The notes beneath the pieces are model-generated. The model worked only from the letters and a program-made list of their open reading frames with translations. It was not told the origin of the DNA and made no database searches. A stretch of DNA of 64,000 bases from contig NZ_MPZS01000001.1 in NCBI RefSeq assembly GCF_002020135.1, positions 124,001 to 188,000 on the forward strand, in the 5' to 3' direction. A program made the translations under genes and the position numbers. The DNA comes from Thioclava marina. GTDB lineage: Bacteria; Pseudomonadota; Alphaproteobacteria; Rhodobacterales; Rhodobacteraceae. This document shows, piece by piece, positions 27,158 to 47,872 of this stretch (its first letter is position 1; each line of letters opens with the position of its first letter).

Positions 27158-28246
27158 TCACCTCTCCGAGGCGTCGCAATCGAGCGCGCGGCAGAGCCAC
27201 TCCGTGACCTCTCTAGTGCTGGATGTGCCACCGAGGTCGCGCGGGCGGCTTGTGGGATCGGCGGTCACGACCTCGATCGCGCGCATCAGCCTTGCCTCCG
27301 CATCGCTCTCGCCCAGGTGCGCCAGCATCATCGCTGCGCTCCAGAAGGTTCCGATGGGATTGGCCACGCCCTTGCCCGTAATGTCGAAGGCAGAGCCATG
27401 GATCGGCTCGAACATCGAAGGGGCGACACGTTCGGGGTTGAGATTGGCCGTCGGTGCGATGCCGATGGAACCCGCAAGCGCAGCCGCCAGATCCGAAAGA
27501 ATGTCGGCATGAAGGTTCGTGGCGACGATCGTGTCGAGCGAACGCGGATCGAGCGTCATTCGCACGGTCATTGCGTCGACCAGCATCCGGTCCCAGGTCA
27601 CGTCGGGGAACTCGGTCGCGATCTCGGCTGCAATCTCGTCCCACAGCACGAGCCCGTAGCGTTGTGCGTTGGATTTCGTCACCACGGTGAGCCGCTTGCG
27701 GGGACGGGCCCGAGCTTGGGAAAACGCCACGCGCATGATGCGCTCGACGCCAGCGCGCGTGAAGATGGCGGTCTCGGTAGCGACTTCATGAGGTTGGCCA
27801 CGATGGCTGCGCCCGCCCTGCCCCGCATATTCGCCCTCAGAGTTTTCACGCACGATCAGCCAGTCCAGATCCTCCGGGCCGACTTTGGAAAGCGGGCTCG
27901 ACAGGCCCGGCAGGATGCGGGTGGGCCGCAGGTTTGCATATTGGTCGAGCCCCTGGCAGATCGCGAGGCGCAGCCCCCAGAGCGTCAGGTGGTCGGGAAC
28001 GTCCGGAGCCCCGACCGCGCCAAAAAGGATCGCATCATAGGCCCGCAAGGTATCGACCCCGTCTGCGGGCATCAGAGCCCCCTCTCGTTGGTAGCGTTTC
28101 GAGCCCCAATCGAAGCGATCGACCTCGAGGCGGAACGCGTTGGTCTGGCGGCTCAGGTGATCAAGTGCCGTCAGCGCGGCTTCGACCACCTCCGGTCCGA
28201 TCCCGTCGCCGGGAATGGCGGCAATACGATGCACCCGGATCGTCAT
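27158..28246 (-). CDS. Tartrate/D-malate dehydrogenase-like enzyme (isopropylmalate dehydrogenase family)
   Basis: The 362-residue enzyme belongs to the metal-dependent beta-decarboxylating dehydrogenases. It has IPGDGIGPEV at the N-terminus, RENSEGEY for substrate binding, the catalytic lysine in VVTKSNAQRYG and the GSIGIAP/EPIHGSA cofactor region. Overall form matches tartrate dehydrogenase/D-malate dehydrogenase more than isopropylmalate dehydrogenase. AAGGAG precedes the ATG. It ends a lacI-SDR-dehydrogenase unit of the sugar-acid locus and could oxidise a C4 hydroxy acid. Confidence 0.8.
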   Translation of the reverse strand: MTIRVHRIAAIPGDGIGPEVVEAALTALDHLSRQTNAFRLEVDRFDWGSKRYQREGALMPADGVDTLRAYDAILFGAVGAPDVPDHLTLWGLRLAICQGLDQYANLRPTRILPGLSSPLSKVGPEDLDWLIVRENSEGEYAGQGGRSHRGQPHEVATETAIFTRAGVERIMRVAFSQARARPRKRLTVVTKSNAQRYGLVLWDEIAAEIATEFPDVTWDRMLVDAMTVRMTLDPRSLDTIVATNLHADILSDLAAALAGSIGIAPTANLNPERVAPSMFEPIHGSAFDITGKGVANPIGTFWSAAMMLAHLGESDAEARLMRAIEVVTADPTSRPRDLGGTSSTREVTEWLCRALDCDASER

Positions 28247-28253
28247 GTTCTCG

Positions 28254-29096
28254 TCACTCCTTAAGCCAGGCCTTGAACGCGGCGTCGTAGTCCGGATGCC
28301 AGCGCGACAGTGGCGGGCGGTTCTCGGTGATGTCTCCGGCAGCCCAGAGGATGCGCTTCACATCGGTTGCGCGATCGACATCGTTATCGGGACATAGAAT
28401 GTAAAAATCGCCGCGATCGATTGAAGCGAAGAGGAACTCCACGACCTGCTCTGGTGTCCACGCGCCGGCAGGTTTTTCGGTGCGCCCGCCTGCGGTGAGC
28501 GGCGTGTAGACAAATCCCGGTATGAACAGCCGTGCCTCGACCTGACAGCCCTCGCGATTGCGCAAATCGTGCTGCAACGCTTCGGTGAAGGCCTTCACGC
28601 CGGCCTTTGACACGTTATAGGCCGGATCTCCCGGGGGTGTGGTTATCCCCTGCTTGGAACCGGTGTTGACGATCAGGCCCGGGGCACCCGACGCGATCAT
28701 GCGCGGCGCGAAGATCTGGCTCCCGCGGATGATCCCTCCCATATTCACTTCCAAGATACGGTCCCAGTTACACTCGGCGTCAAAGATCGAACTGCCGGGC
28801 TGCGTCCCCGCGTTGTTCATCAGGAGATTGACCGGACCGAAGCGCGCCTCGACCGCATCAGCGAGCGCGGAGAGCTGCTCCCCATCTGACACATCGGTCG
28901 CCAGCGTCATCACGTCAGCGTTCGCCGCGCCCGCCACGATCAGGGCGTCGGCGGCCGCTTCGAGGGCGGCCCCGGGCAGATCGGCGATGCAGACGCGCAT
29001 TCCCAGCCCCGCGAGGTGACGAGCGGCTGCGAGACCGATACCCGAGGCCCCTCCGGTGACGACGGCGACATTGCCTTTGACGACAGCGGGATGCAT
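28254..29096 (-). CDS. Short-chain dehydrogenase/reductase of the sugar-acid locus
   Basis: The 280-residue classical SDR has TGGASGIG (about 14-21), NNAG, a catalytic Ser in NTGSKQGI and Y-x3-K in AYNVSKAGVK. AGGAGA precedes the ATG at 29096. It lies 47 bp downstream of the LacI-family gene and 7 bp before the tartrate dehydrogenase-like gene. A role in oxidising a sugar or polyol is inferred from the neighbours. Confidence 0.8.
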   Translation of the reverse strand: MHPAVVKGNVAVVTGGASGIGLAAARHLAGLGMRVCIADLPGAALEAAADALIVAGAANADVMTLATDVSDGEQLSALADAVEARFGPVNLLMNNAGTQPGSSIFDAECNWDRILEVNMGGIIRGSQIFAPRMIASGAPGLIVNTGSKQGITTPPGDPAYNVSKAGVKAFTEALQHDLRNREGCQVEARLFIPGFVYTPLTAGGRTEKPAGAWTPEQVVEFLFASIDRGDFYILCPDNDVDRATDVKRILWAAGDITENRPPLSRWHPDYDAAFKAWLKE

Positions 29097-29143
29097 GCGG
29101 TTTCTCCTATCCGTTCGAAATTCGGGAGCGGCGCGTGTCAGCC

Positions 29144-30169
29144 TCAAGCGGTTGCGCCAATGAAGACCTCGAAATCAGTGTCGATGATTGTCGGCTCTGA
29201 CGGACGCTCGGGCGAGGCTAGCACTTCCTCGATCGCCTTCTTGCCAATGAGAAAACGATTTGAGCGGACGGTCGAGAGCGGCTGCGGCAGCTCCTTGCCG
29301 ATATCGAGACCGTTGAAGCCGAAGACCGCGAACTCGTCAGGCAGACGGATCCCCTCGGCAAGACAATGGAAGACGCCGCCCACCGCCATGTCGTCATTGG
29401 AATAGACGGCGACGTCGATTTGGGGCGCCGAAGCCCGCAGACGCGCGGTCTGGATCCGCCCTTCTGCGACAGAGCTTGCGCCATCGGCCATCGCATGCGC
29501 CTCGATCGACAAGCCCGCTTCCGAAAGCGCCTCGCACAGCCCGTCATAGCGCAGCCGGGCCCGGCGGTCTGCATCCCAGTCATGGCCTACATAACCGAAA
29601 TGGCGATAGCCCCGCTCAATCAGGTGGCGGCCAATCGCGTGACCCGCGCGCCGGTGTGACGTGCCCACCGCGATGTCGATCGGCGTGCTGTCGATATCCA
29701 TCATCTCGACGACGCGGATGCCGCTCTGCTCGAGCATCTTGCGCGTGGCGTCGGTATGATCAAACCCCGCCAGCAAAATCGCAGCGGGCTTCCATGAGAG
29801 GATACCGCGCACCACGGCTTCTTCGCGGTCGATATTGTACTCTGTAGTCGAGATCACGGGCTGCAGGTCGCTCCCTTCGAGCCCGGCGTGAACGCCTTGC
29901 AACACCTCCGGGAAGACGATGTTCGAAAGAGAGGGAATAACAACGCCCACCAGAAACGAGTCGAGCGAGGCGAGCGAGCCGGCGATACGGTTCGGAACGT
30001 AGCCCATGGCACGGACTGTCTCCATCACCTTCTCGCGTGTCGCCTCGGCGACGAGCCCCTTGTTGCGCATGATGCGCGATACGGTCGACTCGCTGACATT
30101 GGCACGGCGCGCGACCTCGCGCACCGTGATCTTGCTCTTGCGGTCGGGCAATCGCTGCTTAGTCCCCAT
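29144..30169 (-). CDS. LacI-family transcriptional regulator
   Basis: The 341-residue protein has an N-terminal LacI helix-turn-helix (ITVREVARRANVSESTVSRI) and a hinge helix (YVPNRIAGSLAS), then a periplasmic-binding-protein-like sensor domain (FLVGVVIPSLSN onward) resembling GntR-type LacI proteins. GGAGG precedes the ATG at 30169. It is likely to bind the AGCGCT-centred palindromes at 35.0-35.2 and 38.87 kb. A weaker match lies in front of its own gene. Confidence 0.9.
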   Translation of the reverse strand: MGTKQRLPDRKSKITVREVARRANVSESTVSRIMRNKGLVAEATREKVMETVRAMGYVPNRIAGSLASLDSFLVGVVIPSLSNIVFPEVLQGVHAGLEGSDLQPVISTTEYNIDREEAVVRGILSWKPAAILLAGFDHTDATRKMLEQSGIRVVEMMDIDSTPIDIAVGTSHRRAGHAIGRHLIERGYRHFGYVGHDWDADRRARLRYDGLCEALSEAGLSIEAHAMADGASSVAEGRIQTARLRASAPQIDVAVYSNDDMAVGGVFHCLAEGIRLPDEFAVFGFNGLDIGKELPQPLSTVRSNRFLIGKKAIEEVLASPERPSEPTIIDTDFEVFIGATA

Positions 30170-30229
30170 GACGTTTTCCTCCAATTCCTTTCGGGCAAGG
30201 CCGAGTCAATGACCCAGAAATGCACCTTG

Positions 30230-30243
30230 CGGCAGCGTTTTCA
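30230..30243. promoter_or_regulatory. Weak match to the locus palindrome upstream of the LacI-family gene
   Basis: On the minus strand, TGAAAACGCTGCCG matches 10 of 14 positions of TGACAGCGCTGTCA. It is 61 bp upstream of the regulator start and could allow autoregulation; a chance match is possible. Confidence 0.3.
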
Positions 30244-30291: not shown

Positions 30292-31185
30292 TCATACCTC
30301 CACGTATTTGCGCCACGGATGCGCTTCCTTGAAGCCCAGAACCTCGCGCGCCTTGCGGTTCGAGATCGGCGCCTCGTCCGGGCCCATCTCGCGGGTGATC
30401 GGAGTGTTCGGGCAGTATTTGTTCAAGAACTCGGTAGTCGGCATGTCGGCGGTGATCGTATCGTTGACCGCGTTGAACACCTGATAGCCCAGCCCGTCCT
30501 TCTCGATGCACAGATGCACGATCTCACCCAGATCGCGCGCGTCGATATAACTCCAGGCGTTGCGTTTGCGGCTCATCGGATTTTCGAGGAAGCCCTTGAA
30601 CATGCCGTACTCATGCGGCTCGATCACGTTGCCGATGCGCAGCGCATAGATATCGGCGCCATAGCGAGCGGCGAAGGCGCGGGCAGTCTTTTCGTTGCAG
30701 ACCTTGGACAGGCCGTAGCTATCCATCGGATCGCTATCGTAGTCCTCCTCGAGCGGGAAGGAATGAAAATCCTTGTCGCCCTCGGCGAAACACACGCCGT
30801 AGGTCGTCTCGGACGACGCGATGATCACCTTGCGAACGCCGAGCTTCATCGCCGCCTCGATCACGTTGTAGGTACTCATGACATTAGCCTGATAGGTCAC
30901 GTTGTCGGGCTCGATCAGCACGCGCGGGATCGCCGCGAAATGCACGATCGCATCGGGGGCCTTGGGCGGGGCTCCTTTCTCGAACCCATCGAAGTCGTGA
31001 TGGGTGGTCAACGCGTTGAACACGGCGCCACTGTCGGTCACGTCGGTGATCAGCGTGTTGACGCCGGGCAGATCGAGCGGCTTGAGGTCGACATTGAGCA
31101 CATCATAGCCCTTGCTCAGCAGATGCGGCACCGCATGGCGCCCAGCCTTGCCGGTTCCGCCTGTGAATACTACGCGCTTGGTCAT
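30292..31185 (-). CDS. NAD(P)-dependent epimerase-family dehydrogenase
   Basis: The 297-residue extended SDR has TGGTGKAG (about 8-15), a catalytic Ser in IASSETTYG and Y-x3-K in DSYGLSKVCNEK. It is the last gene of the permease, binding protein, ATPase and dehydrogenase unit, with GGAG before the ATG at 31185. Enzymes of this fold oxidise uronates, erythronate or related sugars; in this place it may perform the first oxidation of the imported compound. Another in-frame start 11 codons upstream is less likely. Confidence 0.75.
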   Translation of the reverse strand: MTKRVVFTGGTGKAGRHAVPHLLSKGYDVLNVDLKPLDLPGVNTLITDVTDSGAVFNALTTHHDFDGFEKGAPPKAPDAIVHFAAIPRVLIEPDNVTYQANVMSTYNVIEAAMKLGVRKVIIASSETTYGVCFAEGDKDFHSFPLEEDYDSDPMDSYGLSKVCNEKTARAFAARYGADIYALRIGNVIEPHEYGMFKGFLENPMSRKRNAWSYIDARDLGEIVHLCIEKDGLGYQVFNAVNDTITADMPTTEFLNKYCPNTPITREMGPDEAPISNRKAREVLGFKEAHPWRKYVEV

Positions 31186-31232
31186 TTGAGTCTCCGTTTC
31201 GTTCATTCGCTTGTTCATTCGACGGGATGGCC

Positions 31233-32801: not shown

Positions 32802-33734
32802 TTACTTGGTGTAGCTGTCGAGGTTGTCGGCAGTCACCACGGTCACACCGGTGTCGATGTTCTGCGGATCGGTCTCCTCACCCTTGATCTGGGCCACGAG
32901 ATGCTCGACCGCCAGCTTGCCCATCGTGACCGGACGCTGCACCATGATACCGTCGATGAAGCCTTCCTTCACGCCCTTGATCGTATCGGGCAAGTCGTCG
33001 AAAGCGAACACCTTGATCGTTCCTTTCTTGTCCGCGAACTCCTGCTGCGCCAGCACCTTGGCGACCGCCGGCCCTCCAACCTGGCTGATGCCGAAGATAC
33101 CGGCGAGGTTCGGGTTGGCACGCAAAAGCGCCTCGGTCACCGAAACCGCACGCGCCAGGTCGTCCTCTGTGCCTTCGGTCGCAACGAGCTTGATATCGGG
33201 ATATTCGGCAAGCGCTTCCTTCACGCCGTCGATCCGCTCGTTGAGGTTCGACGCGCCGAGTTGCCCCGTGACGATTGCCACCTCGCCCTTGCCGCCGAGC
33301 GCTTCCGCCATGGATTTGCCCATGGTCACACCGGCCTGCTTGTTGATCGTCCCGATATACATGCTGCGCGAGCTGTTGGCGCTGTCACTGTCGAAGGTGA
33401 CGACCTTGATACCCGCATCGGTCGCCTGCTTGATGATGCCTTCGACCGATTTCGGCTCGTTGACCGAGATCCCGATCCCGTCGACGTGGCGCGCCATCAA
33501 GTCCTCGATGATCTTGACCTGCGTCGAGCCTTGCGTGTTCGCGGGCACCACCCACTGATATTTCACACCCAGTTCCTTCGCCGCCTCGGCCCCGCCGGTG
33601 TTGCAGTCGTCAAAGAACGGAACGGCCACTTTCGGTACGAGGGCCACGGTGATGTCCTGAGCGAAGGACGCCGTCATCCCCATACCCGTCGTCAGGGCCA
33701 GAACCGCAGCGGCGGCTTTCATTGCAATACGCAT
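32802..33734 (-). CDS. Ribose-type sugar ABC transporter substrate-binding protein
   Basis: The 310-residue exported protein has a signal peptide (about 1-26, ending ASFAQ) and the RbsB-type periplasmic binding fold, with ITVALVPKVAVPFF at the mature start. GGAGGAGAG precedes the ATG at 33734. The ligand is probably a sugar or sugar acid that feeds the tetronate pathway genes nearby; the sequence alone does not say which. Confidence 0.9.
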   Translation of the reverse strand: MRIAMKAAAAVLALTTGMGMTASFAQDITVALVPKVAVPFFDDCNTGGAEAAKELGVKYQWVVPANTQGSTQVKIIEDLMARHVDGIGISVNEPKSVEGIIKQATDAGIKVVTFDSDSANSSRSMYIGTINKQAGVTMGKSMAEALGGKGEVAIVTGQLGASNLNERIDGVKEALAEYPDIKLVATEGTEDDLARAVSVTEALLRANPNLAGIFGISQVGGPAVAKVLAQQEFADKKGTIKVFAFDDLPDTIKGVKEGFIDGIMVQRPVTMGKLAVEHLVAQIKGEETDPQNIDTGVTVVTADNLDSYTK

Positions 33735-33898
33735 CTTCTCTCCTCCTCCGGACCCAACCAACCGCGGTGAGCCCCTGTTGTTGATGCAGTTTCGGTTTCA
33801 CGCCCCGCAAAGGGGCCCTCTTCGTCCGGATCTCGCGCCGCTCTCTCCTCCAAAGAGACGCGGTCCGGCTTCTTGATCTTGTCTCTCGGATGGGCGGT

Positions 33899-34861
33899 TC
33901 AGCCGCGCCCGCCCATTCGGTTGCGCAGCACATCCAGGCTGACCGCAATCAGGATCACGCCGCCGGTAATGGCTTGCTGGGCATAAGTGTTGATGTTGAG
34001 CAGCACGACGCCGTTGGCGATCTCGCCAATCAGGGCCGCGCCGATGACCGCGCCGAGTACCGAACCGATGCCACCAGCGAGGCTCGCCCCTCCGATTGCC
34101 GCAGCGGCGATAACCTCAAGCTCCGACCCAAAACCAGACGCGGGTTCCGCCGAAAGATAGCGTGAGAAGGCAATGACGCCTGCCAAAGCCGAAATCGTCG
34201 AGGACAGGACGTAGACCGCGAGTTTGACGCGCTGCACCTTGACCCCGCTCAGACGCGCGGCGCTCTCATTGCCGCCCGTGGCGTAGACGTGCCGTCCAAA
34301 GCGGGTCCGGGTCATGATGATCGTGAAGATGACGGTGAGAACCAACAATATCACTACAGGAACCGGCACCGGCCCGACATAGCCCTGCCCCAGGACACTG
34401 AAGCTCTCGGGCGTCTGCGGGGTCAGCGGCACACCATGGGTGATCATGTACATAAGCCCGCGACCGATGCTCAGCGTGCCAAGCGTCGCGATGAAGGGCG
34501 GTAGGCCGATTGCCGTGATCAGCAGCCCGTTGGTCAACCCGAAGGCAAGCCCGACACCAAGACCGGCTGCCACCGCCGCATATTGCGAATAGCCCGCATC
34601 GAAGCATAACGCCGTAATCAGGCCGGCCAAACCCATCGCGGACCCCACCGACAGGTCGATGCCGCCGGTAATGATGACCATCACCATGCCGATGCTCATG
34701 ATGGCTGTCAGAGAGAATGCCCTCGAGACGCCCATCAGGTTCGAAACGGTCAGGAAATAGGGCGTGAACAGGCTGATCAGCAGCCCCATCAGGATCAAAG
34801 CGATCAGTACGTTGAATTCACGCATGTGACGCAATTGAAGCAATTGATGCAGGACTCGCAT
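33899..34861 (-). CDS. Ribose-type sugar ABC transporter permease
   Basis: The 320-residue permease has eight to ten membrane segments with GMVMVIITGGIDLSVGS and the cytoplasmic coupling loop ATGGNESAARLSGV, as in RbsC. The ATG at 34861 has AAGGA upstream. A TTG 15 codons further upstream also has a good ribosome binding site (GGGAGGGG) and cannot be excluded. It is the first gene of the transporter operon, divergent from the Asp/Glu racemase-like gene, with three palindromes in the shared promoter region. A small hairpin at 33802-33816 lies between it and the binding-protein gene. Confidence 0.9.
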   Translation of the reverse strand: MRVLHQLLQLRHMREFNVLIALILMGLLISLFTPYFLTVSNLMGVSRAFSLTAIMSIGMVMVIITGGIDLSVGSAMGLAGLITALCFDAGYSQYAAVAAGLGVGLAFGLTNGLLITAIGLPPFIATLGTLSIGRGLMYMITHGVPLTPQTPESFSVLGQGYVGPVPVPVVILLVLTVIFTIIMTRTRFGRHVYATGGNESAARLSGVKVQRVKLAVYVLSSTISALAGVIAFSRYLSAEPASGFGSELEVIAAAAIGGASLAGGIGSVLGAVIGAALIGEIANGVVLLNINTYAQQAITGGVILIAVSLDVLRNRMGGRG

Positions 34862-35005
34862 GGATTTCCTTTCCGATGGCGTGACCGAATTTTCCGACAG
34901 TGCCAAAACGCCCCTCCCTTCTCCGCTCCCCGGTCGCTCGACGCGCTCATCCCGAATCCGATTGCTGCGGTTTGAGCTGGCGGTTCGAACGGGGATTCCC
35001 TCGAA

Positions 35006-35021
35006 TTGCTAGCGCTGCCAT
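35006..35021. promoter_or_regulatory. Degenerate AGCGCT palindrome, candidate LacI-family operator
   Basis: TTGCTAGCGCTGCCAT matches 12 of 16 positions of ATGACAGCGCTGTCAT. It lies 23 bp from the stronger copy at 35029, about two helical turns. Confidence 0.45.
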
Positions 35022-35028
35022 TCCTCCT

Positions 35029-35044
35029 GTGACAGCGCTGTCAT
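35029..35044. promoter_or_regulatory. AGCGCT palindrome, strong candidate LacI-family operator
   Basis: GTGACAGCGCTGTCAT contains a perfect 14-bp palindrome, TGACAGCGCTGTCA, of the kind bound by LacI-family dimers (central CpG, symmetric arms). It is 168 bp upstream of the permease start. Confidence 0.75.
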
Positions 35045-35227
35045 ACTGAGAGGCGGACAGATCACTTGTCAATCAGCAATTCACAAAACTTCTGTTTCGC
35101 TTCGCGTTGAGAGAGCGCTCAGCACCCCGACAGAACGACGTTCGAACTCGCGCCAAAGCGCTTCAAACAAGGCCTTGGGGACATTCCCACTTGTCATCAC
35201 ACCATGTCCATGATGATACTTTGCCAT

Positions 35228-35243
35228 ATGACAGCGCTGTCAT
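35228..35243. promoter_or_regulatory. Perfect 16-bp AGCGCT palindrome, strong candidate LacI-family operator
   Basis: ATGACAGCGCTGTCAT is a perfect palindrome 46 bp upstream of the racemase-like gene and 199 bp from its twin at 35029, close to 19 turns of B-DNA, which would suit repression by looping. Confidence 0.8.
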
Positions 35244-35289
35244 GCCACGAGAAGCGAAACGCTGCGACCGGGAGAAATGGAACCTGCAG

Positions 35290-35973
35290 ATGCACGAACA
35301 AAGATACGAATCACCGCAATCGCTGGCAATGATCCATACTGTCGTCGGGCTGATACCCGAGCTCGAAAGCCTGGCGCGGGACCACCTGCCCGACTGGCGC
35401 GTCTTCAACATGCTCGACGAGAGCCTTTTACGCGTGACGATCCGGGACGGGTCGGTAAGCGCCATGACGACGCGACGCCTCACGGGCATGATCTGGTCGG
35501 CGGTCGATGCCGGCGCGGAAGCGGTTCTCGTGACCTGCTCGAGCCTTGGACGCGCGGTGGAGCGAATCGCTCCGCTTTGTCCCGTCCCGCTGATCCGAAT
35601 CGACGAAGGGATGGCCCGCGAGGCGGTTGCACGCGGCGACCGCATCGGCGTGCTGGCGACTTTGCAAACAACTCTGACGCCTACCGTGGAACTCATCGAG
35701 CGCGTCAGCAGGGAGGCCGGGGCAGACCGCAACATCTCGAGCCAAGTCGTCGGGGGCGCCTTCGAGACATTGCAGTCCGGCGACCGGGAGGGACACGACG
35801 CGCGCGTCGCCGAAGGCATAGCGAAACTCGCGCGCGAGAATGACGTGGTGGTTTTGGCACAAGCCTCGATGGCTCGCGCGCTCTCCCGGCTTGAGCCTAG
35901 AGCGGACGATCCACCGGTTCTGACCAGCCCGGCTTTGGGCGTCGCGCATGTCGCAAGGCTTTTGTCGCGCTGA
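35290..35973 (+). CDS. Asp/Glu/hydantoin racemase-like protein
   Basis: The 227-residue protein resembles the Asp/Glu racemase superfamily. The first active-site region is VLVTCSSLGRAVE with a cysteine; at the second the usual cysteine is replaced by Ala/Ser in LAQASMARAL. Such proteins also include decarboxylases and isomerases of small dicarboxylic acids. The start at 35290 was preferred to one inside the palindrome at 35242 (longer by 16 residues) and one at 35329; the choice is uncertain. The gene begins a rightward unit with the aldo/keto reductase, 38 bp away. Confidence 0.65.
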   Translation: MHEQRYESPQSLAMIHTVVGLIPELESLARDHLPDWRVFNMLDESLLRVTIRDGSVSAMTTRRLTGMIWSAVDAGAEAVLVTCSSLGRAVERIAPLCPVPLIRIDEGMAREAVARGDRIGVLATLQTTLTPTVELIERVSREAGADRNISSQVVGGAFETLQSGDREGHDARVAEGIAKLARENDVVVLAQASMARALSRLEPRADDPPVLTSPALGVAHVARLLSR

Positions 35974-36011
35974 TCGCGCATGACGAAACAACCCAACAGG
36001 AGGAGATATCC

Positions 36012-37067
36012 ATGAAATACAGAACGCTCGGACGATCGGGGCTCAAGGTCTCGGTGTTGACGATGGGCACGTTCACTTTCGGTGGCGCAGGCGCTTTCAA
36101 GGCCGTGGGCGCCCAAGGTGTGAAGGAAGCACGCAAGCTGGTCGACACCTGCATCGACGCCGGCATCAATCTGTACGACACCGCGAACATGTACTCGACA
36201 GGCCTTTCTGAAGAGATCCTTGGCGAAGTGCTCGACGGTCGGCGCGATGACGTTCTGATTTCATCCAAGGCGCGGATGCGCATCGCCGACGGCCCCAATG
36301 ACGAAGGCTTCTCGCGCTATCACCTGATCCGCGAATGCGAACGCTCGCTCAAGCGGCTGCGAACCGACCGGATCGATATTTACCATATGCATGAATGGGA
36401 CGGCGTGACCCCCATGGAGGAAATGGTCTCGGCGCTCGACGCGCTCGTGCAGCAGGGAAAAGTTCGCTATATCGCCTGCTCGAACTTCTCAGGCTGGCAT
36501 ATCATGAAGGCGCTCGGGGTCAGTGACCGGAGCTTGCGCGAGCGGTTCGTGGCCCAGCAGATCCATTACACACTTGAAGCGCGCGAGGCGGAATACGAAT
36601 TGCTTCCGATCTCGGTCGACCAGGGGCTGGGAGTGCTGGTCTGGAGCCCGCTCGCCGCAGGTTTGCTCTCGGGCAAGCATCGCCGCGGGAAGGGTACCCC
36701 GGAAGGCTCGCGGCAATTCGCCGGCTGGACGGAACCGCCGATCCGCGACGAGGAGAAACTTTGGAACATCGTCGACGCGCTGGTCGAGATCGGCGACGCG
36801 CATGGCGTTTCGGCCGCGCAGGTCGCTCTGGCGTGGCTGCTGACACGTCCTGCGGTCAGCTCGCTCGTCGTTGGCGGGCGCAACCAGCAGCAGTTCATCG
36901 ACAATTTCCGCGCGGTGGATCTGGAACTGAGCGAGGACGAACTGAAGAGATTGCACGAGGTCAGCAAGCTGCCTGTGATCTACCCTTACTGGCACCAGCA
37001 GCAATTCGCCTCGGATCGTTTCAGCCCGGGCGACTGGGCGCTCCATCGCGACTACATGGAAAACTGA
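36012..37067 (+). CDS. Aldo/keto reductase
   Basis: The 351-residue enzyme has the family barrel with DTANMYS (catalytic Asp and Tyr), a Lys in ISSKARM and a His in IYHMHEWD, plus the NADPH region near the C-terminus (VVGGRNQQQ). AGGAGGAGA precedes the ATG. It fits reduction or oxidation of a sugar aldehyde or polyol in the locus. The gene ends 18 bp from the convergent otnI. Confidence 0.9.
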   Translation: MKYRTLGRSGLKVSVLTMGTFTFGGAGAFKAVGAQGVKEARKLVDTCIDAGINLYDTANMYSTGLSEEILGEVLDGRRDDVLISSKARMRIADGPNDEGFSRYHLIRECERSLKRLRTDRIDIYHMHEWDGVTPMEEMVSALDALVQQGKVRYIACSNFSGWHIMKALGVSDRSLRERFVAQQIHYTLEAREAEYELLPISVDQGLGVLVWSPLAAGLLSGKHRRGKGTPEGSRQFAGWTEPPIRDEEKLWNIVDALVEIGDAHGVSAAQVALAWLLTRPAVSSLVVGGRNQQQFIDNFRAVDLELSEDELKRLHEVSKLPVIYPYWHQQQFASDRFSPGDWALHRDYMEN

Positions 37068-37071
37068 CAGA

Positions 37072-37100
37072 GCGCGCCTTCGTCTCAGGCGAAGGCGCGC
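37072..37100. terminator. Hairpin at the convergent ends of the aldo/keto reductase and otnI genes
   Basis: A perfect 11-bp inverted repeat (GCGCGCCTTCG with its complement, 7-base loop) covers the end of otnI. No T-run follows on either strand, so its strength is uncertain. Confidence 0.5.
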
Positions 37101-37855
37101 AACCAGCCCAAACCATCCTCGGTCCGGCCCGCCGGACGATATTCGCACCCCACGAAACCATCATACCCCAGCGCATCCAACTCGCGCAGGACGCGCATAT
37201 CGTCGAGCTCGCCAGTTCCAGGCTCATGGCGATCCGGCACGGCGGCAATCTGGACATGCCCGATGAGCGAAGCCAACTCCCGCAATCCCATCAGCACGTC
37301 GCCGTGCAGGATCTGGCGATGATAGATGTCGAACTGCAGCTTGAGATTGGCCAAACCCAATTCCGCGATCAGATCGGCGGCAGCCCCGAAGTCGTCAAGG
37401 AAATAGCCCGGCATGTCGCGCGTGTTGATCGGCTCGATGAGCACGTCGAGCCCCCGTGCTCCAGCCGCATCGCAAACCCGCCGCAGCGCATCGCGATAGG
37501 CGTCCAGCGCAGCCGCGTCTTGGCGCGAGGCAAGCCCGCTCATGACATGCACCCGCCCTACCCCTGTCGCCTTGGCATAGCGCAGCGCGGTATCAATCGA
37601 TGCCCGGAACTCCTCTGCCCGCGCGGGCAACGCGGCCAACCCGCGATCGCCCGCCGCCCAATCGCCGGGAGGGAGATTGAAGAGCGCCTGTGTCAGACCA
37701 TGATCGTGTAGCTTCTCCGCTATCGCCTCGGGCGGGTAGTCATAGGGGAAAAGATACTCGACGGCGTCGAAACCGGCGTGCTTGGCCGCAGCGAAGCGGT
37801 CGAGAAAGTCGAACTCGCCGAACATCATCGTAAGGTTGGCGGCAAATCTCGGCAT
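37085..37855 (-). CDS. otnI: 2-oxo-tetronate isomerase (hydroxypyruvate isomerase family)
   Basis: The 256-residue protein is a sugar-isomerase-like TIM barrel with RFAANLTMMFGE at the N-terminus, metal ligands in LIEPIN, LQFDIYH and VQIAAVPDRHEPG, and EYRPAG near the end, as in Hyi/OtnI. OtnI converts 2-oxo-tetronate to 3-oxo-tetronate. Its place 3 bp after ltnD and beside otnK and otnC makes this assignment strong over hydroxypyruvate isomerase. Confidence 0.85.
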   Translation of the reverse strand: MPRFAANLTMMFGEFDFLDRFAAAKHAGFDAVEYLFPYDYPPEAIAEKLHDHGLTQALFNLPPGDWAAGDRGLAALPARAEEFRASIDTALRYAKATGVGRVHVMSGLASRQDAAALDAYRDALRRVCDAAGARGLDVLIEPINTRDMPGYFLDDFGAAADLIAELGLANLKLQFDIYHRQILHGDVLMGLRELASLIGHVQIAAVPDRHEPGTGELDDMRVLRELDALGYDGFVGCEYRPAGRTEDGLGWLRAFA

Positions 37856-37858
37856 CGC

Positions 37859-38788
37859 TCAGCCCTCGCTTGCAGGGCTGGCTGCCTTGGGCAGGTCGAG
37901 GCCCGCGATATTCGCGAGCATCCGCGCCACCGAGGCGTCGTCGTCGCGGCCCATCCCCGCGGCCGCCGTCATCACGAACAGCTGCAGCGCCATGCCGGCA
38001 ATCGGGGTCGGGAACTTCATGCTCCGCCCGATATCCGTCACGATCCCGAGGTCCTTCGTGAAGATATCCACCGCACTGCGCGGGCTGTAGTCGCCCTCGA
38101 GCACATGCGGAACGCGGTTTTCGAACATCCAGGAATTGCCAGCCGAGGCGGTGATCACCTCGTAGACCTTCTCGAGGTCCAGATCCATCGCCTTGGCAAA
38201 GGTGATCGCCTCGCAGGCCGCAGCGATATGCACCCCGGCCAAAAGCTGGTTGACCACCTTGAAGGCTGCGCCCGTGCCCGCCTCTTCGCCCAGTTCGTAG
38301 ACCGTCGCGGCAATACTATTCAGCGCCGGACGAATGCGCGCGAAGACCGAGGACGGCCCCGATCCCATGATCGTCAACTCGCCGCTAGCCGCACGCAGCG
38401 CACCTCCACTGATCGGTGTGTCGAGATACTCCACCCCCAGCTCGGCGCAGCGCGCAGCAAAGGCACGCGCCAGATCGGGGGACATGGTGGCACAGGACAT
38501 TACCACTCCCCCCTCGGACATGGCGGCGACCGCACCGGTCGCCCCGAAAAGCACCTCCTCGGTCTGACCGGAATTGACGACCACAGCGATCACCAGTTCC
38601 GCATCGCGAGCCCCCGCCGCAGGATCAGCTGCAACCGCGCCACCAAGTGCCTCGAAGCGCTCCATCGCGTCCGAATTCACATCGACGCCCGTCACCGCGA
38701 ACCCGTCGCGCAGCAAGCTTTCTGCCATGCCGAAGCCCATCGATCCCAGACCGATGACACAGACCTTCGTCTCTTGGGGTGAATTCAT
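37859..38788 (-). CDS. ltnD: L-threonate dehydrogenase-like beta-hydroxyacid dehydrogenase
   Basis: The 309-residue protein has GLGSMGFGMA for NAD, the substrate motif DTPISGGA and the catalytic lysine in AAFKVVNQLL. This is the canonical 3-hydroxyisobutyrate dehydrogenase family form. LtnD oxidises L-threonate to 2-oxo-tetronate. The ATG at 38788 has AGG upstream; a TTG 12 codons earlier is less likely. It is divergent from otnK over a control region with an AGCGTT palindrome. Confidence 0.85.
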   Translation of the reverse strand: MNSPQETKVCVIGLGSMGFGMAESLLRDGFAVTGVDVNSDAMERFEALGGAVAADPAAGARDAELVIAVVVNSGQTEEVLFGATGAVAAMSEGGVVMSCATMSPDLARAFAARCAELGVEYLDTPISGGALRAASGELTIMGSGPSSVFARIRPALNSIAATVYELGEEAGTGAAFKVVNQLLAGVHIAAACEAITFAKAMDLDLEKVYEVITASAGNSWMFENRVPHVLEGDYSPRSAVDIFTKDLGIVTDIGRSMKFPTPIAGMALQLFVMTAAAGMGRDDDASVARMLANIAGLDLPKAASPASEG

Positions 38789-38866
38789 GCGGAATACCTC
38801 TCGATCGCCGATTTCCAGTGCCAACCTGCCCCTTTCCAGCGTCCATCTTGCGCTTGGTTTGCTGGA

Positions 38867-38882
38867 ATGATAGCGTTGTCAT
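38867..38882. promoter_or_regulatory. AGCGTT palindrome between ltnD and otnK, candidate LacI-family operator
   Basis: ATGATAGCGTTGTCAT matches 14 of 16 bases of the palindrome at 35228. It lies 78 bp from the ltnD start and 104 bp from the otnK start, and so could control both catabolic units. Confidence 0.7.
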
Positions 38883-38986
38883 TACATCGTTAGCCCGAGC
38901 CGCGATAGCATTGCAAGGGCTATGTGAAATCGCCGCCCCGAGCTTTCGGGGCGACCGGCGATCTGTGAGCCGAGGGAGGAATTTCC

Positions 38987-40264
38987 ATGCTGATCGGGGC
39001 GATCGCCGATGATATTACCGGCGCGACTGACCTGTGCCTGATGCTGTCACGCAGCGGCCTCAAGACACGGCAGGTCATTGGCCTTCCCGGGCCGCAATTG
39101 GACCTCTCGGGCGCCGAGGCGGTGGTGATCGCGCTCAAGTCCCGTACGATCCCGGCGGCAGAGGCAGTCGAGATGTCGTTGCAAGCCGCGCAAGCCCTGC
39201 GCGAGGCCGGAGCGCGACGTTTGATGTTCAAATATTGCTCGACATTCGATTCCACCGACGCGGGCAATATCGGGCCGGTTACCGAGGCGTTGATGGCGTT
39301 CACGGGCGCTCCCCTGACCATCGCCTGCCCCGCCTTCCCGGCCACCGGGCGCACTGTGTACAAAGGCCACCTCTTCGTTGGGGACCGGCTACTGTCGGAA
39401 AGCCCCCTCAAGGACCATCCCCTCACCCCGATGCATGACCCCGATCTGGTGCGGGTATTGGGTCGACAGACGACGCTGCCGGTCGGCTCGATCGACATCA
39501 CGACGATCCGGCAGGGAGAAGCCGCGCTGCGCGAGGCACTCGACGCGGCGCGCGCCGCGGGCAAACGTATCGTCATTACCGATACGATCGACGAATCGGA
39601 CCTGATGACGCTCGGCGCGGCTTGCGCAGAGATGCCGCTCATCACGGGCGGCTCAGGGATCGGCCTTGGTCTCGCGGCGGCACTACGCGACAACAGCGAT
39701 CTTCATGCCGCTCCGGCTCGGATGGAGGCTCCCGAAGGCCGCAGTGCGATCCTCGCAGGCTCCTGCTCGTTGGCGACGCGTGGCCAGATCGCGGCCGCGC
39801 AAGCTGCGGGTTTGCCGAGCCTCGCGCTCGATGTCGATGCACTGACCGAGAGGCGCCAGAGTGCAGAAGCGATCGCCGACTGGGCAATCGCACAACCCGC
39901 CGACAGCACGCCCCTGATTTATTCGAGCGCCGATCCTGCTCAGCTCACCCAGATCCAGTCGCGTCTGGGACGTGATGCCTCCGGTGCTCTGGTCGAAGAC
40001 ACGCTCGCAGCGATCGCCGAACGCCTGCGCGACGCAGGTTTCACACGGATTCTGATCGCGGGAGGCGAGACGTCGGGCGCGGTGACGGCAGCACTCGGGG
40101 TGCGGTTGCTCGACATCGGACCGGAGATCGACCCTGGCGTGCCGTGGACGATGAGCCTGTCCGGTCCGCGCCTTGCGCTCGCGCTCAAATCGGGGAATTT
40201 CGGTGCCGAGGATTTCTTCCTCAAAGCATGGGATCTGCTGGAGCCGGAGGCCGAGCATGTCTGA
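38987..40264 (+). CDS. otnK: 3-oxo-tetronate 4-kinase (DUF1537 family)
   Basis: The 425-residue protein is a four-carbon acid sugar kinase. The N-terminal domain starts with IGAIADDITGATDLC and includes FKYCSTFDST; the C-terminal nucleotide domain has ILIAGGETSGAVTAALG. DUF1537 kinases phosphorylate 3-oxo-tetronate or similar acids. GGGAGGA precedes the ATG, and otnC overlaps by eight bases. Confidence 0.92.
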   Translation: MLIGAIADDITGATDLCLMLSRSGLKTRQVIGLPGPQLDLSGAEAVVIALKSRTIPAAEAVEMSLQAAQALREAGARRLMFKYCSTFDSTDAGNIGPVTEALMAFTGAPLTIACPAFPATGRTVYKGHLFVGDRLLSESPLKDHPLTPMHDPDLVRVLGRQTTLPVGSIDITTIRQGEAALREALDAARAAGKRIVITDTIDESDLMTLGAACAEMPLITGGSGIGLGLAAALRDNSDLHAAPARMEAPEGRSAILAGSCSLATRGQIAAAQAAGLPSLALDVDALTERRQSAEAIADWAIAQPADSTPLIYSSADPAQLTQIQSRLGRDASGALVEDTLAAIAERLRDAGFTRILIAGGETSGAVTAALGVRLLDIGPEIDPGVPWTMSLSGPRLALALKSGNFGAEDFFLKAWDLLEPEAEHV

Positions 40265-40895
40265 CGAAACGCGCCTGCGCGACCAGATTTGCGCTATCGG
40301 GCGCTCGCTCTTCGATCGTGGACTGACTGCGGGTTCCTCGGGAAACATCTCGGCGCGGCTGCCCGATGGCGGATGGTTGATGACACCCACCAACGCGTCG
40401 CTCGGCGCGCTCGACCCGGCCCGGATCTCACTCTTCGACGAGGACGGAAATTTTGTCTCGGGCGACAAGCCGACCAAGGAATCCTTTCTCCATTTCGCGA
40501 TGTATGACCAGCGCCGCGAGGCAGGCGCCGTGATCCACCTGCACTCGACCCATTCGACTGCGGTCTCGATCCTGCGCGACATCGACCCCGAGGACGTGCT
40601 CCCGCCGCTGACCGCCTATCACGTCATGCGCGTAGGAAAGCTGCCGCTCGTACCCTATTACGCGCCGGGCGACCCGGAGCTGGCCGAGGCAGTCCGCTCA
40701 CTCGCTAGCGCACATCACTCGGTCCTGCTGGCCAATCACGGCCCCGTCGTGGCGGGCACGAGCCTGTCGAACGCGCAATACGCCGCCGAAGAGCTGGAAG
40801 AGACCTCCAAGCTTTTCCTCGCATTGCAAGGCCATGCGATCCGCCCCCTCACACCCGCACAGGTCGCGGACCTGCGCGAGCGGTTCAATCTCTGA
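40257..40895 (+). CDS. otnC: 3-oxo-tetronate 4-phosphate decarboxylase (class II aldolase family)
   Basis: The 212-residue enzyme has the class II aldolase zinc site: HLHSTHST and the later LANHGPVV, with GSSGNISARL at the phosphate site and KPTKESFLHF. OtnC splits 3-oxo-tetronate 4-phosphate to dihydroxyacetone phosphate and CO2. It overlaps otnK by eight bases and so works with it. L-fuculose phosphate aldolase-like activity is the alternative. Confidence 0.88.
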   Translation: MSDETRLRDQICAIGRSLFDRGLTAGSSGNISARLPDGGWLMTPTNASLGALDPARISLFDEDGNFVSGDKPTKESFLHFAMYDQRREAGAVIHLHSTHSTAVSILRDIDPEDVLPPLTAYHVMRVGKLPLVPYYAPGDPELAEAVRSLASAHHSVLLANHGPVVAGTSLSNAQYAAEELEETSKLFLALQGHAIRPLTPAQVADLRERFNL

Positions 40896-45707: not shown

Positions 45708-47228
45708 ATGGACTCGCTTTATCGCACCGCCCCGATCCCCGCCCCGCCAGCCGCCTTCAACATGGCAGCCCATGTGTTGTCCGCTGGCATGTCCACGCCC
45801 GACAAGCTCGCGATGCAGATCGTGAAGCCTTCGGGGGCCGAGCGCTGGTCCTATGCGCGGCTGAACGCTGCGGTGCGAGGCGCCGGAACGGTATTCCTGC
45901 GCGCAGGGCTTGTGCCCGGTGACCGGGTCCTCCTGCGGCTGGGGAACGGGCCTGAATTCCCGGTGGCCTTTCTCGGCGCGATCGCGGCGGGTCTGGTTCC
46001 CGTGCCCTCCTCGTCGCAGCTGACCGGGCCCGAGATCACCAAGCTTGCGCGTGACCTCGCACCCTCGGCCGTCGTTGCGGGCGCGGGTATCGCGCTGCCC
46101 GATCATCCGGCGCAGGTGATCGGTGCCGATGCATTGCGGCGCGCCGAGGAGATCGAGCCCTGCGCTTTTGATCTCGGCGATCCGAACCGTCTTGCCTACA
46201 TGATCTTCACGTCGGGCACGGGCGGCTCGGCGCGCGCCGTGATGCATGCCCATCGCGCGATCTGGGCGCGGCAGATGATGTATCGCGGCTGGTACGGGAT
46301 GGGGTCCGAAGACCGGCTGATGCATGCGGGCGCGTTCAACTGGACCTATACGCTCGGCACCGGGTTGATGGACCCCTGGACCCTGGGAGCAAGCGCGCTG
46401 ATCCCCGCCGAGGGTGTCGAGGCGCGGGCGCTCCCTCTGTTGCTCAAGCGCTTCGATGCGACGATCTTCGCGGCCGCACCGGGGGTGTACCGTCAGATCC
46501 TCAAACATCACGAGCAACTGTCCTTGCCGAAGCTACGCCATGGGCTGAGCGCGGGCGAAGCCCTGCCCGAGCCCACGCGCGCAGCCTGGAATGCCGCGAC
46601 CGGGACCAAGATCTACGAGGCGCTCGGAATGTCGGAATGCTCGACCTTCATCTCGGGCAGCCCCGATCATCCCGCGCCCCCCGGCACCACGGGCTATCCG
46701 CAGGAGGGGCGCACCGTTGCGGTGCTGGGCGAGAATGGCCAGCCCGTGCCGCGTGGCGAGCCGGGCCAGCTCGCGATCCATGAGAGCGATCCGGGGCTCT
46801 ATCTCGGCTACTGGAACGCCCCCGAGGAAACAGCCGCCCGGCGCGTGGGTGAATGGTTCGTCACCGGCGACACGGTGTCGATGGCGGAAGATGGCGCGAT
46901 CACCTATCTCGGGCGCGGCTATGACATGATGAATGCGGGCGGGTTCCGGGTCTCGCCGATCGAAGTTGAGGAAGCGATGCATGACTGCCCCGGCGCGGGT
47001 GACGTGGCCGCCGTCGAGGTCGCGGTGAAAGCCGATGCGACGGTGATCGCCCTGGCCTATACCGGCGAGGCCACGCCCGAGGCGCTGGAGGCCCATGCGC
47101 AACAGGTGCTGGCGCGGTACAAACAGCCGCGGATGTTCCGCCATGTGGACGCCCTGCCCCGCAACCGCAACGGCAAGATCCTGCGTTCGGAGATCCGCGC
47201 GCGGCTGCAAGAGGAGATGATCACGTGA
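45708..47228 (+). CDS. AMP-forming acyl-CoA synthetase, benzoate-CoA ligase type
   Basis: The 506-residue enzyme belongs to the adenylate-forming ligases. The A3 motif is FTSGTGGSARAVMHAH (normally TSGTTGxPK, here with Arg for Lys), followed by YEALGMSECSTFISG, GEWFVTGDTV and the A10 lysine in LPRNRNGKILR. Segments resemble benzoate-CoA and related short/aromatic acyl-CoA ligases. It overlaps the DsbA-family gene by four bases. Substrate not established. Confidence 0.8.
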   Translation: MDSLYRTAPIPAPPAAFNMAAHVLSAGMSTPDKLAMQIVKPSGAERWSYARLNAAVRGAGTVFLRAGLVPGDRVLLRLGNGPEFPVAFLGAIAAGLVPVPSSSQLTGPEITKLARDLAPSAVVAGAGIALPDHPAQVIGADALRRAEEIEPCAFDLGDPNRLAYMIFTSGTGGSARAVMHAHRAIWARQMMYRGWYGMGSEDRLMHAGAFNWTYTLGTGLMDPWTLGASALIPAEGVEARALPLLLKRFDATIFAAAPGVYRQILKHHEQLSLPKLRHGLSAGEALPEPTRAAWNAATGTKIYEALGMSECSTFISGSPDHPAPPGTTGYPQEGRTVAVLGENGQPVPRGEPGQLAIHESDPGLYLGYWNAPEETAARRVGEWFVTGDTVSMAEDGAITYLGRGYDMMNAGGFRVSPIEVEEAMHDCPGAGDVAAVEVAVKADATVIALAYTGEATPEALEAHAQQVLARYKQPRMFRHVDALPRNRNGKILRSEIRARLQEEMIT

Positions 47229-47872
47229 TCACGCTTGATATCTTCGCCGATCCGGTCTGCCCCTGGTGTTTCATCGGCAAGGCGCGGCTGGATCGCGCGC
47301 TGGAGCAGCGCCCCGGCCATTCCATCGTGCGCAGCTGGCAACCTTTCGAACTGAACCCGACAATGCCCGCCGAGGGCATATCGCGCGCAGCCTATCTGCA
47401 GGCGAAATTCGGGCAGGATGGCGCCGCGAAAATGCATGTGCAGCTCCTCGAGATCGCCGAAGCGGAAGGCTACGATTTTCACCCCGAGCGCGTCACCCAT
47501 CAGCCCAACACCCGCGACGCGCATCGCCTGCTCTACTGGGCCGGGATCGAGGAAGCGCAGGAGGCGGTGATGGAAGGGCTGCTGAGCGCCCATTGGCGCG
47601 AGGGGCGCAATATCGGCGATCATGCGACGCTGGGCGCGATTGCCGAAGCCGCCGGGATGGACCGCCGAATGATCCAGCGCCTGCTGGCCTCGGATGCCGA
47701 TCGCGACACGATCATCGCCAAGGAGGACTATGCTCGCGAGCGCGGCATCACCGCAGTCCCCAGCGTGATCGTCGCGAATGCCCATCTGGTGAGCGGGGCG
47801 CAGCCGACCGAGCTTTGGCTCAAAGTGATCGACGAGCTGTCCGGCGCCCCGCCCGAGGCCACGCGACACTGA
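47225..47872 (+). CDS. DsbA-family (FrnE-like) thioredoxin-fold oxidoreductase
   Basis: The 215-residue protein starts LDIFADPVCPWCFIGKARLD with C-P-W-C, then a helical insert and ends TAVPSVIVANAHLVSGAQ with the cis-proline. There is no signal peptide, so it acts in the cytoplasm like FrnE/polyketide-associated DsbA proteins. Start is GTG overlapping the ligase stop. Pairing with a ligase is seen elsewhere, but the partner of this one is not known. Confidence 0.85.
   Translation: MITLDIFADPVCPWCFIGKARLDRALEQRPGHSIVRSWQPFELNPTMPAEGISRAAYLQAKFGQDGAAKMHVQLLEIAEAEGYDFHPERVTHQPNTRDAHRLLYWAGIEEAQEAVMEGLLSAHWREGRNIGDHATLGAIAEAAGMDRRMIQRLLASDADRDTIIAKEDYARERGITAVPSVIVANAHLVSGAQPTELWLKVIDELSGAPPEATRH

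What the first reader, a model, noticed from the sequence alone, without database searches (positions are those of the whole stretch)
35006..38882. A set of near-identical AGCGCT/AGCGTT palindromes joins the two halves of the sugar-acid locus into one regulon
Three strong copies of a 16-bp palindrome (35029, 35228, 38867) and a degenerate one (35006) lie only in the divergent control regions of the transporter/racemase-like genes and of ltnD/otnK; a weaker match is in front of the LacI-family gene (30230). The two best copies are 199 bp apart, about 19 helical turns, suggesting repression loops. The central CpG and symmetry fit LacI-family binding. That the LacI-family protein at 29144 binds them is inferred from location.
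Basis: partly seen in the sequence, partly recalled or inferred. Interest (0 to 1): 0.7.

Follow-up and report, generated by a model that had tools for sequence, protein, structure and literature searches.

The report
LacI-type operators of sugar-acid regulon
Short DNA palindromes in front of the sugar-acid uptake and breakdown genes are very probably the docking sites of the repressor encoded in the same locus, so the locus works as one switchable unit; this is a textbook kind of bacterial gene switch, newly placed here.

Summary
The palindromes are real. Core TGACAGCGCTGTCA is exact at 35030 and 35229; TGATAGCGTTGTCA lies at 38868; a degenerate copy at 35007. In the 3.65 Mb genome these three are the only exact matches to the symmetrised consensus TGAYARCGYTRTCA. 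In relatives carrying the same LacI protein the motif (at most 1 mismatch) lies in 26 of 26 otnK/ltnD control regions, 18 of 20 racemase/permease regions and 19 of 26 ltnD/lacI regions, against 19 matches in 1.32 Mb elsewhere. It is absent upstream of otnK in 52 of 52 fetched Rhodobacteraceae genomes with otnK but no close LacI. Site variants tend to follow the recognition-helix residues. So the one-regulon reading and the LacI assignment are well supported; binding is untested. Two parts fail: the weak site before lacI at 30230 is not conserved (0 of 28 regions), and phased looping is unsupported: spacing in relatives is 156-200 bp without common helical phase, and the protein lacks a counterpart of Lac repressor's C-terminal tail. 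Promoter-like elements at fixed distance suggest simple steric repression. A new member of a known kind.

The parts
35228..35243 (.). Operator O-rac, perfect 16-bp palindrome ATGACAGCGCTGTCAT, 7 bases after the -10-like hexamer of the racemase-like/aldo-keto reductase promoter
   Evidence: equivalent site in the racemase/permease region of relatives
35029..35044 (.). Operator O-perm, GTGACAGCGCTGTCAT, at the promoter of the leftward permease-to-ttc gene string
   Evidence: TTG element at fixed distance in 17 of 18
35006..35021 (.). Auxiliary degenerate operator TTGCTAGCGCTGCCAT, 23 bp from O-perm
   Evidence: present in Thioclava loci L015, L016, L022, L045 and the window, not in the other relatives
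38867..38882 (.). Operator O-ltn, ATGATAGCGTTGTCAT, between ltnD and otnK
   Evidence: a site with at most 1 mismatch in 26 of 26 otnK/ltnD regions; 12 of 12 LacI clusters
35067..35072 (-). -35-like element TTGACA of the permease promoter
   Evidence: (sequences: TTGACA in 11 of 16 listed): TTG[ACT] within 1 nt of -29 from the operator in 17 of 18
35191..35220 (+). Promoter-like TTGTCA-18-GATACT for the racemase-like gene
   Evidence: 1 found in the region, 0.1 expected. In relatives a TTG element lies nearer the operator (-29, 12 of 17), so the window's own hexamers are not the conserved ones in exact position
38911..38916 (-). -35-like TTGCAA of the ltnD promoter
   Evidence: TTG[ACT] within 1 nt of -35 in 23 of 24; the consensus scan found no promoter here
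38886..38893 (-). -10-like CTAACGAT of the ltnD promoter
   Evidence: consensus GGCTAAC of the 60-nt flank; the consensus scan found no promoter here
29144..30184 (-). LacI/GntR-subfamily repressor, recognition pair Glu-Ser before TVSR
   Evidence: Pfam LacI and Peripla_BP_3; NCBIfam GntR best but below cut-off
30292..31218 (-). NAD-dependent epimerase/dehydratase-family protein
   Evidence: Pfam PF01370
31233..32735 (-). Sugar ABC transporter ATPase
   Evidence: Pfam
32802..33761 (-). Sugar ABC substrate-binding protein
   Evidence: Pfam PF13407
33899..34861 (-). Sugar ABC permease
   Evidence: Pfam PF02653 (run on 33899-34906)
28254..29147 (-). Short-chain dehydrogenase/reductase-like gene, probably in the same leftward string
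   Evidence: Gene position; same order in several relatives; name is from reading the sequence, no family search run
27158..28246 (-). Tartrate dehydrogenase
   Evidence: TIGR02089, 523 bits, cut-off 470
35290..35973 (+). Asp/Glu/hydantoin racemase-family protein
   Evidence: PF01177
36012..37067 (+). Aldo/keto reductase
   Evidence: PF00248
37085..37855 (-). OtnI, 2-oxo-tetronate isomerase
   Evidence: NF043033, 354 bits, cut-off 325
37859..38788 (-). LtnD, L-threonate dehydrogenase
   Evidence: NF043037, 446 bits, cut-off 350 (run on 37859-38824)
38987..40264 (+). OtnK, 3-oxo-tetronate kinase
   Evidence: NF043035, 568 bits, cut-off 350
40257..40895 (+). OtnC, 3-oxo-tetronate 4-phosphate decarboxylase
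   Evidence: NF043034, 341 bits, cut-off 250

Best explanation
The palindromes are the operators of a local LacI-family regulon. Without inducer, a dimer of the LacI protein encoded at 29144 sits on each operator and blocks the promoter beneath it: O-perm blocks the leftward string permease - binding protein - ATPase - epimerase-like - lacI - SDR - ttc, O-rac blocks racemase-like - aldo/keto reductase, and the single O-ltn lies between the ltnD-otnI and otnK-otnC genes and can block both. A four-carbon sugar acid or an intermediate of its breakdown would release the protein. Since lacI lies in the leftward string, O-perm would also give autoregulation without a separate lacI operator. Shown: the sites, their rarity in the genome, conservation, co-occurrence with this LacI, fixed position next to promoter-like elements, a tendency of site bases to follow recognition residues. 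Inferred: binding, repression, dimer state, operon structure, effector, autoregulation.
For: Only three exact matches to TGAYARCGYTRTCA in the 3.65 Mb genome, all here. The consensus was written from the window's own sites before the relatives were scanned; with at most 1 mismatch it is in 26/26 otnK<>ltnD, 18/20 rac<>perm (20/20 at 2 mismatches) and 19/26 ltnD<>lacI regions, with 19 matches in the other 1.32 Mb; by clusters of LacI at 85% identity 12/12, 8/9 and 13/18. TGACAGCGCTGTCA is the commonest perfect 14-bp palindrome found without any prior motif, in 11 of 74 loci. In 52 of 52 fetched Rhodobacteraceae genomes with otnK but without a close LacI no site with at most 1 mismatch lies in the fetched stretch of about 1.3 kb or more upstream of otnK. 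Promoter-like elements at fixed distance: 17/18, 12/17, 23/24 (shuffled flanks reached at most 6). The 7 ltnD<>lacI regions without a 1-mismatch site carry related palindromes in at least six cases: TGCAAGCGCTGTCA twice (L080-L082), TGTTAGCGCTGAGA twice (L053, L058), TGAAAGCGCTTGCA (L078).
Against: No binding or expression data. Relatives are linked by descent, so flank conservation is not fully independent, and the shuffles do not correct for this. The genomes differ in gene order (ltnD seen in 27 of the 52 stretches), so some promoters may lie outside the fetched stretch. At 1 mismatch the motif is common somewhere in the genomes of the family: 136 of 149 have a match, many more than for the reversed pattern (for example 17 against 2), probably other LacI operators that I did not trace. 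7 of 26 ltnD<>lacI regions lack a site at 1 mismatch, 3 at 2 mismatches. A consensus scan found no promoter in 38780-39000 and none leftward in 34850-35310; the otnK-side element is less regular (13 of 24), and around the ltnD<>lacI sites a fixed TTG element is weak (7 and 9 of 23).
Confidence: 0.87

Rival explanations
1. The sites belong to the other GntR-like LacI protein of the genome (C1:1965206, 44% identical), perhaps a global central-carbon regulator such as GapR, and the local LacI protein binds elsewhere.
For: That protein also has Glu in the recognition pair (Glu-Met) and its probable sites share the AGCG centre: a 2-mismatch TGTTAGCGATAACG before its own gene and CGTTAGCGCTAACG before a glucose-6-phosphate dehydrogenase-like gene.
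Against: Its probable sites have TT where these have AC in each arm. LacI proteins matching at E at most 1e-60 are in 128 of 149 family genomes and, recounted from the lists, in 44 of the 52 genomes, yet 52 of 52 lack the motif before otnK. I did not classify those proteins one by one, so this is indirect.
Confidence: 0.07
2. Same regulon, but the protein loops the DNA between O-perm and O-rac (199 bp).
For: Two strong operators 199 bp apart; two well-separated sites with at most 2 mismatches in 21 of the 22 rac<>perm regions scored, one of which (L149) duplicates L029. Looping would not need exact phase with a flexible partner.
Against: Spacing 156-200 bp with no common helical phase (Rayleigh p 0.54-0.58 for 21 and 0.93-0.95 for 18 regions; without the duplicate 0.68-0.75 for 20 and 0.91-0.94 for 17). 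The match to Lac repressor ends at query residue 323 of 346 and LacI residue 306 of 360, so the stretch that tetramerises Lac repressor (recalled) has no counterpart. Each operator has its own promoter-like element.
Confidence: 0.1
3. The protein is an activator or dual regulator at some of these promoters.
For: Some LacI-family members are predicted to be dual regulators (PckR, section 11 of PMC4052901).
Against: By distance from the -35-like elements the sites lie over or just downstream of the -10 region at the permease, racemase and ltnD sides, where a bound protein would block polymerase.
Confidence: 0.07
4. The palindromes are chance or belong to an unrelated feature such as a terminator stem.
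For: With mismatches allowed the genome is near background.
Against: Exact copies, conservation and placement; no terminator-like site found in 34850-35310 or 38780-39000.
Confidence: 0.01

Closest known systems
LacI-family local regulons as reconstructed by Ravcheev et al. 2014 (PMC4052901; outline with abstract, sections 9 and 11 and passages seen)
   Same: Even palindrome with central CG, sites near promoters of neighbouring catabolic operons, multiple sites in divergent regions; tandem distances there peak at 13, 22 and 32 bp, close to the 23 bp here
   Different: The words threonate and tartrate do not occur in its main text; its supplement and RegPrecise were not readable here, so this regulon may be listed there
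GntR/IdnR gluconate and idonate repressors (LacI family)
   Same: Best NCBIfam models for the protein; sugar-acid theme
   Different: Below both curated cut-offs (287 of 400 and 231 of 500 bits). GntR's Lys-Met pair and its ACCGGT-centred operator are recalled; Lys-Met relatives found here have A[CT]CG[AG]T-centred palindromes
VdtR, DeoR-family repressor of the ltnD/otnK cluster in Brucella (PMC10580937; passages seen)
   Same: Represses the same C4 acid-sugar pathway
   Different: Another protein family; its DNA binding was not changed by L-threonate or D-erythronate in that paper
E. coli Lac repressor
   Same: DNA-binding and sensor domain architecture; operator near the start site (the latter recalled)
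   Different: No counterpart of its C-terminal tail

Membership tests
LacI-family transcription factor | N-terminal LacI HTH and periplasmic-binding-protein-like sensor domain | tested here: met
   PF00356 57.9 bits (cut-off 27), PF13377 76.7 bits (cut-off 26.5)
LacI-family operator | Even palindrome with central CG | tested here: met
   description of the family
LacI-family operator | Bound by the cognate protein | not testable with these tools
   Only co-occurrence and covariation
Local LacI regulon with a separate operator before its own gene | Site directly upstream of lacI | tested here: not met
   0 of 28 epim>lacI regions at 2 mismatches; in relatives where lacI stands next to ltnD there is such a site (19 of 26 at 1 mismatch)
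GntR/IdnR equivalog | Score above curated cut-off | tested here: not met
C4 acid-sugar catabolic cluster (ltnD, otnI, otnK, otnC) | All four enzymes above curated cut-off | tested here: met
Loop-forming tetrameric repressor (Lac type) | C-terminal tetramerisation stretch | tested here: not met
   the role of the stretch in Lac repressor is recalled
Loop-forming tetrameric repressor (Lac type) | Helically phased operator spacing conserved | tested here: not met

The most novel reading that the evidence does not exclude
This is an undescribed family of LacI-type repressors of C4 acid-sugar catabolism across Alphaproteobacteria, in which the same target genes (ltnD-otnK) have been held under LacI proteins whose recognition pairs (ES, EI, EN, EA, KM, QM) and operators changed in step: AGCGCT-centred with different arms (TGACAGC, TGTTAGC, TCTCAGC), A[CT]CG[AG]T-centred and TACGTA-centred. 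It would be a natural series for testing the LacI recognition code with the regulated pathway held constant.
Probability: 0.5. Interest if true: 0.45.

Novelty: new member of a known kind. Interest (0 to 1): 0.3.

Why it matters
It gives a likely regulator and an operator motif to a C4 acid-sugar pathway whose only regulator paper met in these searches is on the DeoR-type VdtR of Brucella, ties an uncharacterised ABC transporter, racemase-like protein, aldo/keto reductase and epimerase-like protein to that pathway, and so narrows what they do. The change of recognition residues and operators at one target is a modest resource for the LacI recognition code.

Tried and rejected
Rejected: (1) a core-only pattern AGCGCT-N4-AGCGYT, which gives background; (2) the 30230 site (3 mismatches, 27 places in the window do as well; 0 of 28 regions at 2 mismatches; the 3-mismatch match itself is seen in 2 of 4 Thioclava loci, L015 and L022); (3) phased loops; (4) further regulon members in the genome: of the three 1-mismatch places two lie inside long open frames (C1:1118327 and C2:331662), and C1:489823 lies about 120 bp before a sugar-binding protein-like gene (named by reading the sequence) and has the arm TGTTAGC, which fits the paralogue better; (5) TGACAGCGCTAACA inside the binding-protein gene of L017, L020 and L021 and the 3-mismatch match at 33374, which look like conserved coding sequence; (6) the paralogue as the binder.

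Dropped or not counted: loci L089-L092 (Clostridia, no hits to the cluster genes) were left out of the 78 loci, leaving 74. L015, L022 and L045 (Thioclava) were dropped and in the second half, but kept; one search repeats the count by cluster. L149 (G077) turned out on checking to hold the same stretch as L029, so it is no independent case; one search repeats the phase test without it. In one search, 52 of the 53 genomes with otnK and without a close LacI were fetched (G121 was not), one otnK place each although G007, G102 and G134 have more. L147 (G021) ends at a contig edge, has no otnK match and was not counted. The permuted patterns include repeats. Structure prediction, fold search and covariance models were not used.
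Full report
What was checked. The informative unit is the whole 14-bp core TGACAGCGCTGTCA: it gives two exact copies (35030, 35229), one with 2 mismatches (38868) and five with 3 in the window, while a core-only pattern gives background. In the 3,653,331-base genome the exact core occurs only at those two places, the symmetrised consensus TGAYARCGYTRTCA only at the three strong sites, and TGNYAGCGCTRNCA only at 35007, 35030 and 35229. With mismatches the genome is near background (14 against 13 for the reversed pattern; 6 against 3; 64 against 45).

The locus. LtnD, OtnI, OtnK, OtnC and tartrate dehydrogenase score above their curated cut-offs. The other members are a sugar ABC transporter, an epimerase-family protein, an Asp/Glu racemase-family protein and an aldo/keto reductase. 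The regulator at 29144 is a LacI-family protein whose best models, GntR and IdnR, are below cut-off.

Conservation. A scan for relatives of the LacI protein gave 78 loci; 74 carry hits to the cluster genes, by their titles mostly Rhodobacterales and Rhizobiales. 61 of the 74 hold at least one of ltnD, otnK, otnC and otnI in the fetched DNA; 13 do not, several of them on short contigs. Without using a motif, the commonest perfect 14-bp palindrome in the 74 loci is TGACAGCGCTGTCA, in 11 of them (four are Thioclava); the next has 6. With the consensus written from the window alone and at most 1 mismatch, a site is in 26 of 26 otnK<>ltnD regions, 18 of 20 rac<>perm regions and 19 of 26 ltnD<>lacI regions; at 2 mismatches 26, 20 and 23. 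The other 1.32 Mb of these loci hold 19 matches at 1 mismatch. The regions hold 86 sites at 1 mismatch. For 300 arm-permuted patterns the mean was 0.46; one reached 73 sites (TRAYAGCGCTRTYA) and one 25, both made from the real motif by moving degenerate letters. Collapsing LacI proteins at 85% identity leaves 12 of 12, 8 of 9 and 13 of 18 clusters. Of the 9 regions that fail at 1 mismatch, the two rac<>perm ones have 2-mismatch sites, and the seven ltnD<>lacI ones have a 2-mismatch site or a related palindrome: TGCAAGCGCTGTCA twice in each of three Chelatococcus loci, TGTTAGCGCTGAGA twice in two loci, TGAAAGCGCTTGCA in one, a 2-mismatch site in L050.

The site follows the regulator. Of 149 Rhodobacteraceae genomes 55 have otnK. 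Apart from the window's own genome and G077, which carries the close LacI and sites but is the genome of L029 again, I fetched about 1.3 kb or more upstream of otnK from 52 of the other 53. None has a site with at most 1 mismatch; one has a 2-mismatch match, inside ltnD. The gene order differs (ltnD seen in 27 of 52 stretches), which weakens but does not remove the contrast. Against uniqueness: anywhere in the genome, 136 of 149 genomes have a match with at most 1 mismatch, often well above the reversed pattern; I did not trace these, and they are probably other LacI operators.

Recognition residues. By the published LacI code the pair before TVSR goes with two bases of each arm (PMC2978694; passages and section 9 seen; its table of pairs was not readable). 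Here the arms under Glu-Ser proteins (28 loci with sites) have AC 61, GC 43, AT 25, CA 8 and others 7; under Glu-Ile proteins (21 loci) AC 34, TT 14, GT 6, CT 6 and others 4. So the two share AC and differ in the second choice: TT is never seen under Glu-Ser. The CA arms are under Glu-Ser in Chelatococcus and in L021 and L023, an exception to a strict rule. Two Glu-Asn loci carry TGTTAGCGCTGAGA in two inverted copies. In other Rhodobacteraceae a Lys-Met or Gln-Met LacI protein stands next to or within 6 kb of ltnD, and before its gene lies an A[CT]CG[AG]T-centred palindrome in 5 of 6 Lys-Met stretches examined, or TGTTTACGTAAACA-like in 2 of 2 Gln-Met ones; these were picked as the best palindromes in each stretch, so they are suggestive only. 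Of the four LacI-type proteins of the own genome only the local one has Glu-Ser; the others have Glu-Met, Pro-Thr and Lys-Ser (read).

Mechanism. Upstream of the permease operator a TTG element, TTGACA in 11 of 16 listed, lies at -29 in 17 of 18 regions; on the racemase side 12 of 17; for ltnD a TTGC element at -35 in 23 of 24 with GGCTAAC between it and the operator; for otnK 13 of 24. Shuffled flanks reached at most 6, but do not correct for common descent. Around the ltnD<>lacI sites the signal is weak (7 and 9 of 23). In the window TTGTCA-18-GATACT ends 7 bases before the racemase-side operator; the scan found no promoter on the permease side or near ltnD/otnK, so those elements rest on conservation. 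By these distances the operators lie over or just after the -10 region, the place for steric repression. Looping is not supported: spacing varies from 156 to 200 bp without common phase, and the protein ends shortly after the region matched to Lac repressor. lacI has no operator of its own here (0 of 28); if the leftward genes are one transcript, O-perm gives autoregulation. In relatives where lacI stands next to ltnD it has a site directly before it (19 of 26).

Comparison with print. Searches for threonate with LacI, DUF1537/threonate/erythronate, Rhodobacteraceae/LacI/threonate, ltnD/otnK with regulator and tetronate with LacI family listed no paper whose title or abstract names a LacI regulator of this pathway; lists were cut at 8 to 20 rows. 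The one regulator paper met is on VdtR, a DeoR-type protein of Brucella. The library lacks most subscription journals and RegPrecise could not be consulted, so absence from print is not shown.

Verdict. It is an ordinary kind of system with a new member.

Noticed in passing
L156 4089-4102 (G000:C3:240588) and L112 4217-4230 (G000:C1:1966216): Palindrome CGTTAGCGCTAACG ends 22 bases before the start of a glucose-6-phosphate dehydrogenase-like gene (named by reading the sequence), and TGTTAGCGATAACG lies before the Glu-Met LacI paralogue: this may be the GapR regulator of PMC4052901 and its motif.
   Followed up: partly
L107, L119, L120, L131, L134, L141, L143, L144: Other Rhodobacteraceae have a different LacI protein (Lys-Met or Gln-Met pair) next to or within 6 kb of ltnD, in 7 of these 8 with a different palindrome before its gene: regulator replacement at the same target genes.
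   Followed up: partly
L051, L062, L068, L069, L071, L073-L076, L085: In ten loci of the Glu-Ile branch two operators stand 54-57 bp apart before lacI, a tighter spacing than in the racemase/permease region.
   Followed up: no
L080, L081, L082: Chelatococcus Glu-Ser proteins go with two TGCAAGCGCTGTCA sites 32 bp apart in inverted order, an exception to a strict residue-to-base rule.
   Followed up: no
L017 6799, L020 1235, L021 6810; window 33374: TGACAGCGCTAACA inside the ABC binding-protein gene of three relatives, a weaker version in the window; probably coding constraint, but an internal operator is not excluded.
   Followed up: no
many genomes of the family, e.g. G006, G032, G049, G120: Matches to TGAYARCGYTRTCA with 1 mismatch far exceed the reversed pattern (17 against 2, 17 against 2, 17 against 1, 14 against 0), hinting at other regulons with similar operators.
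   Followed up: no
window 47218-47231: Perfect palindrome TGATCACGTGATCA at the junction of two genes near 47225 (C1:171218).
   Followed up: no
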